The translations under genes were made by a program, and so were the position numbers. A stretch of 64,000 bases of DNA from Opitutales bacterium (GTDB lineage Bacteria; Verrucomicrobiota; Verrucomicrobiia; Opitutales; UBA953): NCBI GenBank assembly GCA_017440935.1, contig JAFSAO010000004.1, positions 16,040 through 80,039 of the forward strand, written 5' to 3'. Under the pieces are notes generated by a model, which was not told the origin of the DNA, made no database searches, and was given only the letters and a program-made list of their open reading frames with translations. Positions 1 through 64,000 of this stretch are shown here, one piece after another. Positions within the stretch are counted from its first letter, which is position 1, and every line of letters starts with the position of its first letter.

Positions 1-1410
1 GACGAAAAAAACAAGCAGCTCCAGCGCATTTACGGTGTGGCGTTCCCGTCCAAAGCCGAGCTCGACGAGTATTTGCACAATCTTGAAGAAGCGAAAAAAC
101 GCGACCACCGCAAACTCGGCAAGGAACTGAAACTTTTCACCATCGACGATTCCGTCGGGCAGGGCTTGGTGCTTTGGACGCCGAACGGCTCCGTTATTCG
201 CCAAGAACTTCAAACCTTCATCGGCGAAGAACTTTTCCGTCAGGGCTACAGCCAGGTTTTCACCCCGAACATCGGAAATCTCGACCTTTTCCGCACATCC
301 GGGCACTTCCCGTATTACCGCGAATCGCAATTCACCCCGGTTATCGATCAGGAACAAATCGATGCGCTTGCCGCAGAAGGCAAAACCTGCGCGGATCTTT
401 CGGATTTGCTCAACGCGGGAACGCTCGACGGCTTCCTGCTCAAGCCGATGAACTGTCCGTTCCACGTCAAACTTTACGCGTCTCAACCGCATTCCTACCG
501 AGAGCTTCCCGTGCGCCTTGCCGAGTTCGGCACCGTTTACCGCTGGGAACAATCCGGCGAACTCAACGGGTTGACCCGCGTGCGCGGTTTTACGCAGGAC
601 GACGGACACATTTTCTGCACCGAGGACCAAATCCACCAGGAAGTTTGTTCCTGCCTTGAGCTCGTGAACATCATTCTGACGACGCTCGGCATGAAAGATT
701 ATTCCGTGCGCGTCGGCTTGCGCGATCCCGAATCCGATAAATACATCGGCAAGGACGAAAATTGGGAACGTGCCGAAAATGCCTGCCGCGCGGCGGCTGC
801 GACGCTCGGTGTTCCCGTGGTCGAAGAAAAGGGCGAGGCAGCATTTTACGGACCGAAAATCGACTTCGTCGTTAAAGACACGCTCGGGCGCGGCTGGCAA
901 CTCGGCACCGTGCAGGTCGATTTCAACCTGCCGGAACGCTTTGATTTAACTTACACGGCTTCGGATAACACACCGCGCCGCCCGGTCATGATTCACCGCG
1001 CGCCGTTCGGTTCGCTCGAACGCTTTGTCGGGATTCTGATTGAACATTTTGCGGGCGATTTCCCGACGTGGCTCGCGCCGGAACAGGTGCGCGTTCTGCC
1101 GCTTAACGACGGGCTTGTCGACCACGCGAAAAACGTCGTCGCCGAGCTCCGTAAATTGCGAATCCGCGCCACGGTGGACGAGCATTCCGACAAGCTCGGA
1201 GCGAAAATTCGCCGCGCCGAGCTCGACAAGGTGCCGCACATGCTCGTCATCGGAGCCAAGGAAATGGAAGCCGGCTTGGTCAACGTGCGTTCCCGCGCGG
1301 ATAAATCTCTCGAAGGCTCATGCACGTTGCAGGAGTTTATCGATAAGCTGATGCCGCTCATCCGCGAACGCCGGCTCTCGCCCGATGCTCCTCTCGCAAA
1401 GAAAGTTTAA
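1..1410 (+). CDS. thrS: Threonyl-tRNA synthetase, C-terminal part (5' end outside window)
   Basis: Class II aminoacyl-tRNA synthetase that charges tRNA-Thr. The frame is open from base 1, and its first residues (LQRIYG) match the end of the ThrRS editing region, so the TGS and most of the SAD domain lie upstream; an internal GTG at 37 is not the start. The catalytic core is complete. It has the zinc-binding Cys in LKPMNCPFH (near nt 450), a motif 2 segment ending DDGHIF (near nt 600, second zinc ligand) and IHRAPFGSLERF (near nt 990, third zinc ligand and motif 3). The anticodon-binding domain (LAPEQVRVLPL onward) closes the protein. The frame shows no damage. It is followed by thyA after 64 bases. 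Confidence 0.97.
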   Translation, partial: DEKNKQLQRIYGVAFPSKAELDEYLHNLEEAKKRDHRKLGKELKLFTIDDSVGQGLVLWTPNGSVIRQELQTFIGEELFRQGYSQVFTPNIGNLDLFRTSGHFPYYRESQFTPVIDQEQIDALAAEGKTCADLSDLLNAGTLDGFLLKPMNCPFHVKLYASQPHSYRELPVRLAEFGTVYRWEQSGELNGLTRVRGFTQDDGHIFCTEDQIHQEVCSCLELVNIILTTLGMKDYSVRVGLRDPESDKYIGKDENWERAENACRAAAATLGVPVVEEKGEAAFYGPKIDFVVKDTLGRGWQLGTVQVDFNLPERFDLTYTASDNTPRRPVMIHRAPFGSLERFVGILIEHFAGDFPTWLAPEQVRVLPLNDGLVDHAKNVVAELRKLRIRATVDEHSDKLGAKIRRAELDKVPHMLVIGAKEMEAGLVNVRSRADKSLEGSCTLQEFIDKLMPLIRERRLSPDAPLAKKV

Positions 1411-1474
1411 TGACGGGTGTTTTTAAAGCTTAAAGGATGGGGTGAAAAACGCCTCTTTAATCTTTCTTCTCGAA

Positions 1475-2320
1475 ATGAAAGCCTACTTAGACCTTCTTCG
1501 AAACGTTTTTGAAAACGGTGAAACCCGTAGCGACCGCACGGGGGTAGGCACGCGCGGAATTTTCGGCGCGCAAATGCGTTTCGATTTGTCGAAAGGCTTC
1601 CCGCTCGTTACGACGAAAAAAGTCCACACGCGTTCCATTATTCAGGAACTGCTTTGGTTCATCGGCGGACACACAAACAATGCGTGGTTGCGGGAACGCG
1701 GCGTCACGATTTGGGACGAATGGAGCACTGCCGAGCAGTGCGCACGCTTCGGACGCCAAGAAGGCGACCTCGGTCCGATTTACGGACACCAATGGCGCAA
1801 TTTCGGCGCAACGAAAAATCCCGACGGCTCCTTCGCGCGCGACGGCGTTGACCAAATCTCCAATCTCATCGCCGAAATCAAACGCAATCCCGCGTCGCGT
1901 CGCCTCATCGTTTCCGGCTGGAATCCCGGCGAAGCTGACAAAGTGGCGCTCCCGCCGTGCCACACGCTGTTTCAATTTTACGTCGGCGGGAACGGTAAAC
2001 TGAGCTGCCAACTCTACCAACGTAGCGCGGATTTGTTCCTCGGCGTGCCGTTCAATATCGCGAGCTACGCGCTTTTTACGCACATGATCGCGCAGGTCTG
2101 CGGACTCGGCGTCGGCGATTTCGTTCACACTTTCGGCGATGCGCACATTTACAGCAACCACTTCGAGCAGGTAAACCGCCAGCTTTCCCGCGAGCCGCGC
2201 GCGCTCCCGTCCCTGAAGCTCAATCCCGACGTGAAAGACATTTTTGCGTTCCGCTACGAAGATATTTCCATCGAAAATTACGATCCGCATCCGGGCATCA
2301 AAGCCCCCGTCGCCGTTTAA
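1475..2320 (+). CDS. thyA: Thymidylate synthase
   Basis: Methylates dUMP to dTMP using methylene-tetrahydrofolate, giving dihydrofolate, which the next gene product recycles. The 281-residue protein is close to the usual ThyA length. The ATG at 1475 was chosen over an upstream in-frame GTG (1442) because MKAYLDLLRNV aligns with the family N-terminus. Visible landmarks are SDRTGVGT (folate/phosphate site), the catalytic Cys in LPPCHTLFQF, QRSADLFLGVPFN and HIYSNH. The gene is separated from folA by a palindromic repeat, so the two may still be cotranscribed. The family assignment is secure. Confidence 0.97.
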   Translation: MKAYLDLLRNVFENGETRSDRTGVGTRGIFGAQMRFDLSKGFPLVTTKKVHTRSIIQELLWFIGGHTNNAWLRERGVTIWDEWSTAEQCARFGRQEGDLGPIYGHQWRNFGATKNPDGSFARDGVDQISNLIAEIKRNPASRRLIVSGWNPGEADKVALPPCHTLFQFYVGGNGKLSCQLYQRSADLFLGVPFNIASYALFTHMIAQVCGLGVGDFVHTFGDAHIYSNHFEQVNRQLSREPRALPSLKLNPDVKDIFAFRYEDISIENYDPHPGIKAPVAV

Positions 2321-2325
2321 TTTTT

Positions 2326-2422
2326 AGTGAATAGCTAATAATGAATAGTGAATAATTTCGTCTTAAAAATTTTGCTTCCGGCAAAATTAAACACTGCGTT
2401 ATTCACTATTCACTGTTCGTTA
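2326..2422. repeat. Intergenic palindromic repeat, family A, copy 1
   Basis: About 95 bases built from GTGAATA/TATTCAC words with an inner inverted pair (TTTTGC...GCAAAA). It matches, in inverted orientation, copies at 49451-49553 and 51403-51510. The shared words are CGAACAGTGAATA, AACGCAGTG and the TTTTGCC stem. It fills the thyA-folA gap and has no coding potential of its own. Confidence 0.75.
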
Positions 2423-63055: not shown

Positions 63056-63324
63056 CAGCCTGAAATAAGTGCGAAATATCAGGTGCTTCGTGCGCCATTT
63101 TTTGGGAAACTTCGAGAGCATCGAAAATGCTTTCAAAGCGAGCCACGCGAACGCGACTCGCGTGGAATGTGGGTTTCAACCCCGCGTTTTAATTCGGAAT
63201 TTGCGATTTGAGATTTGCCGTTGGCAAACCTTGTGCGCTTCGTTGTTTTAATGTTTCAAAAGTGTCATTTTATTTTGACATATTTATACCGCGCGGATTT
63301 AATTCCCCAAAAATTTGCATTGTC
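63056..63324. other. Intergenic stretch with one hairpin
   Basis: No gene seen. A perfect hairpin CCACGCGA/TCGCGTGG lies at 63143-63165. An AATTCGGAATTTGCGATTTGAG block at 63185-63206 resembles the repeats around the four-helix-bundle gene. Confidence 0.55.
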
Positions 63325-63855
63325 TTGAAAATCGAAACGTCAGTCTCGCTTCCCGAAGGAACACTTCTCGCATGGGAAATGTCGGTAATTGACGTGTTCG
63401 TGCGCGCGGCGGCGATGTTCGGCTTTCGTAAGTCCGTCGCCTTGGTTTATGGTGCGCTTTATTGTTCCCGCGAGCCGCTTTCTGTGCCGGAGCTCCAAAC
63501 GAAATTGCAACTTTCCCGTGGGGCCGTTGTGGAAGCAATTCAGTTTTTGCGTCGGTTGGGTGCGGCGCGGGTTTGCCTCAAAATCGGGGAACGCCGCGAT
63601 TATTTCACGGCGGAAACGGATTTGAAGAAATTTGTCCAAGGCTTTTTGAAGGAAATCCTCGTTCCCGCGCTGGAAAAAGCGGACATCCGTCTCGCGCAAG
63701 CCGAAGAATCCGCCGGGAAAAGTTCTGCCGTTCCCGCCGCCGATGCCGCGTTTGCGCGTTCCCGCGTTGCCGAACTCACGCTCTGGAAATCCCGCCTCAC
63801 CGAAGCCCTCCCGCTCCTCGACGGGCTTTTAAACACCAATGGAGGCGTCCGCTAA
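63325..63855 (+). CDS. GbsR/MarR-family transcriptional regulator
   Basis: A winged-helix DNA-binding protein of about 176 residues. The GbsR core is MFGFRKSVALVYGALYCSRE, PLSVPELQTKLQLSRGAVVEAI (recognition helix), LRRLGAARVCLKIGERRDYF (wing), followed by a helical dimerisation part. GbsR relatives control glycine betaine synthesis or uptake and other osmostress genes. The likely start is the TTG at 63325 because the helix before the core is conserved; an ATG at 63379 would shorten it. It precedes a flippase gene by 41 bases. Confidence 0.82.
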   Translation: MKIETSVSLPEGTLLAWEMSVIDVFVRAAAMFGFRKSVALVYGALYCSREPLSVPELQTKLQLSRGAVVEAIQFLRRLGAARVCLKIGERRDYFTAETDLKKFVQGFLKEILVPALEKADIRLAQAEESAGKSSAVPAADAAFARSRVAELTLWKSRLTEALPLLDGLLNTNGGVR

Positions 63856-63896
63856 TTTCTAATCTTTAATCTCTAATCTTTCACCTCTCTTCTTTC

Positions 63897-64000
63897 ATGC
63901 CGAAGGCAGCGACAGTTTCCGAGAACAACAAGCGTATCGCGAAGAATACGCTGATGCTCTACGTGAAGATGGCGTTTACGACTTTTGTCGGGATTTTTGC
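63897..64000 (+). CDS. Polysaccharide flippase (Wzx-like), 5' end only
   Basis: Only the first 34 codons are in the window. The peptide MPKAATVSENNKRIAKNTLM, then LYVKMAFTTFVGIF, matches the conserved start of oligosaccharide flippases (N-K-R-I-A-K-N-T-x-x-L-Y). The remainder should hold 12 or more transmembrane helices. If the gene is intact beyond the window, an exopolysaccharide or O-antigen cluster may follow. Confidence 0.8.
   Translation, partial: MPKAATVSENNKRIAKNTLMLYVKMAFTTFVGIF

What the first reader, a model, noticed from the sequence alone, without database searches (positions are those of the whole stretch)
1..64000. A short word, GCGTTCCCGC, is repeated hundreds of times: a possible DNA-uptake signal
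The 7-base core CGTTCCC/GGGAACG occurs 44 times in the first 12 kb by my count (24 in one orientation, 20 in the other) and 10 times in 21.7-24.5 kb. Chance gives about 1.5 in 12 kb. It sits inside genes of both strands in all frames (read as VPA, AFP, RSR, AGT, RER, GNA), favouring linkers and less conserved segments; recA has none in its coding part. It is not palindromic, so it is not a HIP1-like site, and orientation is balanced, which argues against KOPS or Chi. Head-to-head pairs form terminators. This matches uptake sequences of Neisseria/Haemophilus, which I do not know for Verrucomicrobiota. Another possibility is a site for an unknown nucleoid protein or a methylase.
Basis: partly seen in the sequence, partly recalled or inferred. 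Interest (0 to 1): 0.93.

Follow-up and report, generated by a model that had tools for sequence, protein, structure and literature searches.

The report
A DNA-uptake word in Opitutales bacteria
A genus of gut bacteria (Opitutales, Verrucomicrobiota) carries one eight-letter DNA word up to several thousand times per genome and keeps it against mutation, and the word likely works as a 'self' tag that favours uptake of the bacterium's own kind of DNA, a device reported so far from only two families of Proteobacteria.

Summary
The count is right and the effect is large. CGTTCCCG occurs 176 times in the window and 5,274 times in the 1.84-Mb genome (2,620/2,654), one per 348 bases; the reversed word occurs 85 times. 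Shuffling synonymous codons leaves 127 of 1,132 coding copies. In four comparisons of aligned relatives the exact word is kept at 73-96%, one-mismatch versions at 48-63%; third codon positions inside words diverge 3.9%, outside 23.6%. So the DNA word itself is maintained. It is dense in 6 of 8 genomes of one genus and in none of 71 others of its family. Two sister species, nested among dense ones, hold few words but an excess of one-letter-off relics: decay. Inverted pairs form predicted terminators with the orientation bias described for Neisseria. The genome has a type IV pilus with retraction ATPase, and ComEC. A small pilin, found in 6 of 6 dense genomes, 1 of 2 sparse ones and 0 of 3 family outgroups, is a candidate receptor. 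Best reading: an independently evolved DNA-uptake sequence. Uptake, binding and competence are untested; DprA was not seen in the half of the genome read; scarcity in new DNA and in genes is inconclusive.

The parts
1..64000 (.). dispersed word CGTTCCCG / CGGGAACG, 176 copies (89 + / 87 -), 5-16 per 4 kb
9221..9252 (+). head-to-head pair CGTTCCCG...CGGGAACG with T-tract: predicted intrinsic terminator, downstream of the gene at 8497-9192
   Evidence: 14 pairs, -22.7 kcal/mol, z -6.4
19919..19948 (+). head-to-head word pair with T-tract: predicted terminator, downstream of the gene at 18876-19886
   Evidence: -22.0 kcal/mol, z -6.2
51513..51540 (+). head-to-head word pair flanked by A- and T-tracts: predicted terminator, downstream of the gene at 49807-51399
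   Evidence: -18.2 kcal/mol, z -5.2
13525..16059 (-). nrdA: 5 words here, 5-10 in three congeners, 0 in 5 spirochaete homologues (74-78% protein identity)
12436..13521 (-). nrdB, no word; lies in the longest word-free stretch of the window (11977-13857)
16144..17274 (+). recA ORF; its single word lies before the RecA-family match
3685..25948 (.). stretch holding the blocks aligned with locus L033 (Opitutales RGIG9148): 48 of 55 words kept against 43% of all 8-mers

Best explanation
CGTTCCCG, repeated 5,274 times in this genome and maintained there as an exact DNA word, is likely a DNA-uptake sequence: a surface receptor on the type IV pilus is predicted to bind it, so that fragments carrying it would be taken up and recombined preferentially. 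Inferred steps: released DNA of the same genus carries about three words per kilobase and so would be bound; PilT would retract the pilus through the secretin, ComEC would pass one strand into the cytoplasm, and recombination would replace the resident allele. Because alleles with the word enter more often than alleles without it, words would accumulate by point mutation and lost words would be repaired by recombination (molecular drive, as modelled for Haemophilus). Shown here: density, both orientations, exact-word conservation, substitution-type differences between relatives, word pairs in predicted terminators, genus restriction, relic words in two sister species, presence of pilus ATPases, secretin and ComEC. 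Predicted only: competence, the receptor (best candidate the small pilin G000:C18, locus L123:9409-9828 minus), and uptake bias.
For: Density and specificity. Not codon use. Exact-word conservation: 48/55, 43/50, 46/63 and 50/52 words kept in four pairwise comparisons against 40/76, 40/72, 28/58 and 15/24 for one-mismatch words (Fisher p 2.7e-5 to 0.0086); third codon positions 5/129 changed inside window words, 1,346/5,715 outside. Differences are substitutions: of 55 window words 48 are identical in L033, 5 have one and 2 have two mismatches, none meets a gap. Phylogeny: dense in 6 of 8 genomes of the genus, none of 71 others in the family, none of the 283 other class genomes drawn; the two sparse species nest with dense G251 (90/93, 100/99) and have a one-mismatch to exact excess ratio of 2.56 and 7.16 against 0.57-1.03 in samples of the six dense ones. 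Terminators: 64 CGTTCCCG..CGGGAACG pairs against 23 in the opposite configuration in 924 kb, with 67 against 3 flanking T-tracts; the same bias is described for Neisseria (PMC1852404, passages). Islands: 5 of 15 long gaps. Machinery. Candidate receptor.
Against: No uptake, binding or competence experiment exists, and the named relatives in these calls are metagenome-assembled genomes. DprA, ComEA and ComF were not found by protein motifs and tblastn in 924 kb (50%) of the genome (one weak ComF hit is a ribose-phosphate diphosphokinase); a DprA-like gene was found only in sparse congener G290. ComEC passes the cut-off of the ComEC_N-term model (68.3 against 36.5 bits) but scores 67.7 against 190 for full ComEC/Rec2, and only the Competence domain is seen. 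ComEC and PilB/PilT are in all 10 genomes tested, word-free ones included, so they do not explain the word. The candidate pilin is acidic (pI 5.5), whereas ComP is basic (recalled); it is present in sparse G290, and 64 of 103 order genomes, all outside the genus, have weaker matches (best 1e-19, near full length). In the window-L033 comparison the word ranks only third of 61 frequent 8-mers in retention, behind two overlapping words and just ahead of AAAAAATC, 16 of 19. Counted from the other genome, retention is 48/63 for L033. Ten of 15 long gaps are not known to be islands, and 18 of 20 word-free stretches over 2 kb are AT-richer than the sample. Word density in genes (2.82/kb) is about that outside (3.07/kb), while uptake sequences elsewhere are under-represented in coding sequence.
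Confidence: 0.78

Rival explanations
1. The word is the binding site of an unknown chromosomal protein (nucleoid, segregation or repair protein) that needs one site every few hundred bases, and selection keeps the sites.
For: Near-uniform density along the genome (2.1-3.45 per kb in 25 stretches of 14-64 kb) and strong exact-word conservation fit any essential binding site.
Against: Balanced orientation (1,343/1,358 in 924 kb) and near-exponential spacing (CV 1.01) show no architecture; nothing in it predicts restriction to one genus with decay in a sublineage; known site families of this sort are far sparser or skewed (recalled).
Confidence: 0.1
2. The word is a methylation or restriction-related site (HIP1-like), over-represented because methylation there matters.
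For: The genome has restriction systems (HpaII-type endonuclease with Vsr and a C5 methylase in L121, EcoRI-type methylases in L127 and L135) and avoids GTAC, GGCC and CTAG (0.09-0.12 of expectation).
Against: The word is not palindromic, unlike HIP1; restriction systems would cause avoidance, as seen for the palindromes, not a 60-fold excess over the reversed word; no methylation data.
Confidence: 0.05
3. The word is a Chi-like recombination signal.
For: Abundant, non-palindromic 8-mer like the enterobacterial Chi (recalled).
Against: No overall orientation bias; density of one per 348 bases would leave a nuclease little DNA to degrade (inference); does not predict the paired terminator configuration.
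Confidence: 0.04
4. The word arises from mutation or repair bias (for example very-short-patch repair) rather than from selection or drive.
For: A Vsr gene lies in a word-poor island (L121:16361-16783).
Against: One-mismatch words are kept little or no better than all 8-mers in the same alignments (53/43, 56/46, 48/55 and 63/63%) while the exact word is; a bias would have to recognise eight bases.
Confidence: 0.02

Closest known systems
DNA uptake sequence (DUS) of Neisseriaceae, read by minor pilin ComP
   Same: Thousands of copies in both orientations, one word conserved over a genus, inverted pairs in terminators with one preferred configuration, type IV pilus and ComEC present. Density comparable with kingDUS, 5,918 in 2.4 Mb (a longer word; PMC3630211 section 6).
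Uptake signal sequence (USS) of Pasteurellaceae, receptor predicted to be ComN/PpdA (PMC12616744, passages)
   Same: Abundance, balance, terminator use, point-mutation origin (PMC7811141 section 8; PMC1852404 passages).
   Different: Word unlike AAGTGCGGT or ACAAGCGGT, though the 63% of copies with C at +8 read GCGG on the other strand, the USS core; no AT-tract outside the core (flanking positions carry at most 0.21 bit except +8 with 0.56).
HIP1 of cyanobacteria (PMC4390886, start of abstract in a search listing)
   Same: Very abundant octamer (its spread through coding sequence is recalled).
   Different: HIP1 (GCGATCGC) is palindromic and linked to two orphan methyltransferases.
Chi and KOPS sites (recalled)
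   Same: Over-represented octamers.
   Different: They are skewed along the replichore; this word is balanced.

Membership tests
uptake sequences (functional class) | short non-palindromic word in gross excess over background, in both orientations | tested here: met
uptake sequences (functional class) | maintained as DNA and changing by point mutation, not insertion | tested here: met
uptake sequences (functional class) | inverted pairs in intrinsic terminators with one preferred configuration | tested here: met
   predicted terminators; compared with PMC1852404
uptake sequences (functional class) | under-represented in newly acquired segments | tested here: inconclusive
   11 gaps of 2-3 kb against 3.8 expected; of 15 gaps over 1.7 kb six were scanned and five hold restriction, Vsr, methylase or IS1595 genes; most gaps are AT-richer
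uptake sequences (functional class) | under-represented in rRNA genes and in coding sequence | tested here: inconclusive
   2.82 per kb in called genes, 3.07 outside, home-made gene calls; rRNA operons not tested
uptake sequences (functional class) | type IV pilus with retraction ATPase, secretin and ComEC | tested here: met
   ComEC below the full-length model's cut-off
uptake sequences (functional class) | DprA, ComEA, ComF | tested here: inconclusive
   not found in 924 kb of 1,835 kb; DprA-like gene in congener G290
uptake sequences (functional class) | preferential uptake or transformation of DNA with the word | not testable with these tools
   experiment needed
Neisserial DUS | CTG core shared by all dialects | tested here: not met
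   neither CGTTCCCG nor CGGGAACG contains CTG; core from PMC3630211 and PMC12616744
Neisserial DUS | ComP receptor: small basic minor pilin (basic charge recalled) | tested here: inconclusive
   small pilin found in all 6 dense genomes but pI 5.2-5.5; FimU, GspH and FimT are among middling fold matches
Pasteurellacean USS | AAGTGCGGT or ACAAGCGGT motif | tested here: not met
   de novo words are different
HIP1 | palindromic octamer | tested here: not met
   CGTTCCCG is not its own complement
Chi / KOPS | orientation skew | tested here: not met
   contigs are unordered, so the test is per stretch

The most novel reading that the evidence does not exclude
A third DNA-uptake-sequence system has evolved independently in Verrucomicrobiota, outside the two proteobacterial families, with its own word (CGTTCCCG) and its own pilus-borne receptor, and it has been lost again in one branch of the genus, where the words are now decaying.
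Probability: 0.72. Interest if true: 0.95.

Novelty: new variant of a known kind. Interest (0 to 1): 0.9.

Why it matters
[quoted passage not shown] An independent case in another phylum, in gut bacteria for which my searches found no report of competence, would show that self-DNA recognition evolves repeatedly. It offers a built-in natural experiment (six dense species, two decaying ones, word-free sister genera) for the old question of whether such words spread by molecular drive or for a benefit. The word would also be a practical handle for transforming this group.
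Full report
What was checked. The most exceptional octamer is CGTTCCCG with 176 copies in the window against 7.4 (first-order) or 23 (third-order Markov) expected. In the genome in which the window lies (1,835,357 bases, 22 contigs, 98% complete) there are 2,620 forward and 2,654 reverse copies, against 31 and 54 of the same letters read backwards: one word per 348 bases.

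The consensus. In 528,684 bases of this genome 1,525 exact words are found against 82 expected; most one-mismatch words are near or up to four times expectation, TGTTCCCG six times. Position +8 prefers C (63%) or T (24%), +9 avoids T, -1 prefers G (48%); further flanks carry almost no information. The five other dense genomes show the same flanks with small shifts.

It is not codon use. With amino acids and per-gene codon use kept and synonymous codons shuffled, 127 +/- 10 words are expected in the called genes; 1,132 are present. The excess reaches protein level: VPA, AGT, RER and RSR tripeptides are 2.6- to 3.3-fold over expectation from their dipeptides, VPV and AFP 1.6- to 1.7-fold, while AGN, SFP, CGT and TGN are not raised. 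The word occurs in all six frames. Gene calls are my own codon-score selection of ORFs, 356 genes covering 76% of the sample; unlisted genes count as 'outside'.

It is maintained as DNA. Between the window and locus L033 (Opitutales RGIG9148, 89% identical over 20.4 kb) 48 of 55 words are kept, 43% of all 8-mers, and 40 of 76 one-mismatch words. Three further comparisons give 43/50, 46/63 and 50/52 words against 40/72, 28/58 and 15/24 one-mismatch words and 46, 55 and 63% of all 8-mers (Fisher p, word against one-mismatch, from 2.7e-5 to 0.0086). Counted from the other genome of each pair the figures are 48/63, 49/60, 49/52 and 50/53 (two of these sets with some double counting); a fifth, small set is told under Tried and rejected. 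Among 61 8-mers with ten or more copies in the first comparison the word ranks third in retention, behind two words overlapping it and just ahead of AAAAAATC. Inside window words 5 of 129 third codon positions differ, outside 1,346 of 5,715. None of the 55 compared window words falls on a gap; of 63 L033 words 12 differ by one base, 2 by two and 1 by four, so words come and go by substitution. The ribonucleotide reductase gene nrdA has 5-10 words in four genomes of this genus and none in the five spirochaete homologues counted, which are 74-78% identical in protein; the direction of that transfer was not tested.

Who has it. Of 286 class genomes drawn, only the three of this genus are dense; by my reading of the table the highest other density is about 183 per Mb, against 2,874 here. 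All 71 genomes of other genera of the family hold 47-375 copies of CGTWCCCG. Within the genus, six of eight genomes hold 5,192-6,550 copies, G288 1,362 and G290 546. A tree of ComEC plus four pilin groups nests G288 and G290 with dense G251 (100/99; their own pairing 90/93), away from five other dense species. The ratio of one-mismatch excess to exact excess, with the reversed word as control, is 0.57-1.03 in the six dense genomes, 2.56 in G288 and 7.16 in G290: relics of a word no longer kept. Samples for this were 22-529 kb per genome, not whole genomes. Named loci of the group are L033 (water deer rectum), L034 (sheep rectum) and L036; G150 is probably isolate SIG76, since its contig C3 has the length of SUVQ01000002.1.

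Terminators. In 924 kb, CGTTCCCG..CGGGAACG pairs at most 18 bases apart occur 64 times and the opposite configuration 23 times; TTTT within ten bases follows 67 flanks of the former and 3 of the latter. Three window examples fold with z from -5.2 to -6.4. This is the '+-' bias described for Neisseria (PMC1852404, passages read). The smaller samples of four other dense genomes lean the same way (12/3, 10/0, 5/1, 11/5); in the smallest sample, G286, 2 pairs of each kind were seen, without T-tracts.

Word-free stretches. Gaps follow an exponential law except for a deficit under 9 bases and an excess of 2-3 kb gaps (11 against 3.8). Of 15 gaps over 1.7 kb in 529 kb I scanned proteins of six: five hold an HpaII-type endonuclease with Vsr, EcoRI-type methylases, an IS1595 transposase or a GmrSD-type nuclease, and L130's two scanned proteins had no family. 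The other nine include nrdB, the pilus secretin and unscanned genes. The C5 methylase next to the HpaII gene carries seven words, so islands are not uniformly free of it.

Interpretation. Uptake-biased transformation would create this pattern: words accumulate by point mutation until limited by gene function, are conserved where recombination repairs them, and decay when uptake stops (the first part as set out in PMC7811141 section 8; the rest is my inference). That paper also says uptake sequences are scarce in new segments, rRNA genes and coding sequence; here the first is suggestive only, the second untested and the third not evident. I give the uptake reading 0.78. A methylase, nucleoid or Chi-like role explains abundance and conservation but not the relic pattern, the terminator configuration and the genus limits together. 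What is missing is any measurement, and a full competence gene list: DprA, ComEA and ComF were not seen in half the genome.

Novelty. The only two families stated to do this are Neisseriaceae and Pasteurellaceae (PMC12616744, passage). My searches of the open-access library listed no report in this phylum or for this word; most subscription papers and all bioRxiv preprints are not covered.

Noticed in passing
own genome sample (window, L001-L004, L118-L137) and relatives: GTAC, GGCC and CTAG occur at 0.09, 0.10 and 0.12 of expectation in this genome and are avoided to varying degree in the other dense genomes (GTAC only to 0.73 in G289) but also in sparse G290 (0.39, 0.20, 0.07), much less in G098 (0.94, 0.82, 0.76).
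   Followed up: partly
13525-16059: nrdA is 71-78% identical in protein to several spirochaete homologues (other spirochaetes 64-67%, best other phyla 69-71%): probably a lateral transfer between gut spirochaetes and this genus.
   Followed up: partly
L121:13844-19796: AT-rich island with an HpaII-type endonuclease, Vsr and C5 methylase; the methylase carries seven words, the other genes one or none.
   Followed up: partly
genomes G288, G290, G098, G246: They have a further GspE-type ATPase and a second four-pilin cluster that all six dense genomes lack; why dense genomes have a single pilus system is unexplained.
   Followed up: no
L144-L149, L214-L223 (G290): Abundant repeats around CACCACCAACCC dominate its over-represented octamers.
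   Followed up: no
L015-L019 (G098): Sister genus shows a weak excess of CGTACCCG (33 against 4.8 in 100 kb) and CGTGCCCG (27 against 6.3), one letter from this word.
   Followed up: partly
genus g32 of family f9: Several genomes hold two to three times more CGTTCCCG than the reversed control (for example 510 against 174 in G046).
   Followed up: no
8497-9192: Protein with a C-terminal PEP-CTERM sorting signal, followed directly by a word-pair terminator.
   Followed up: no
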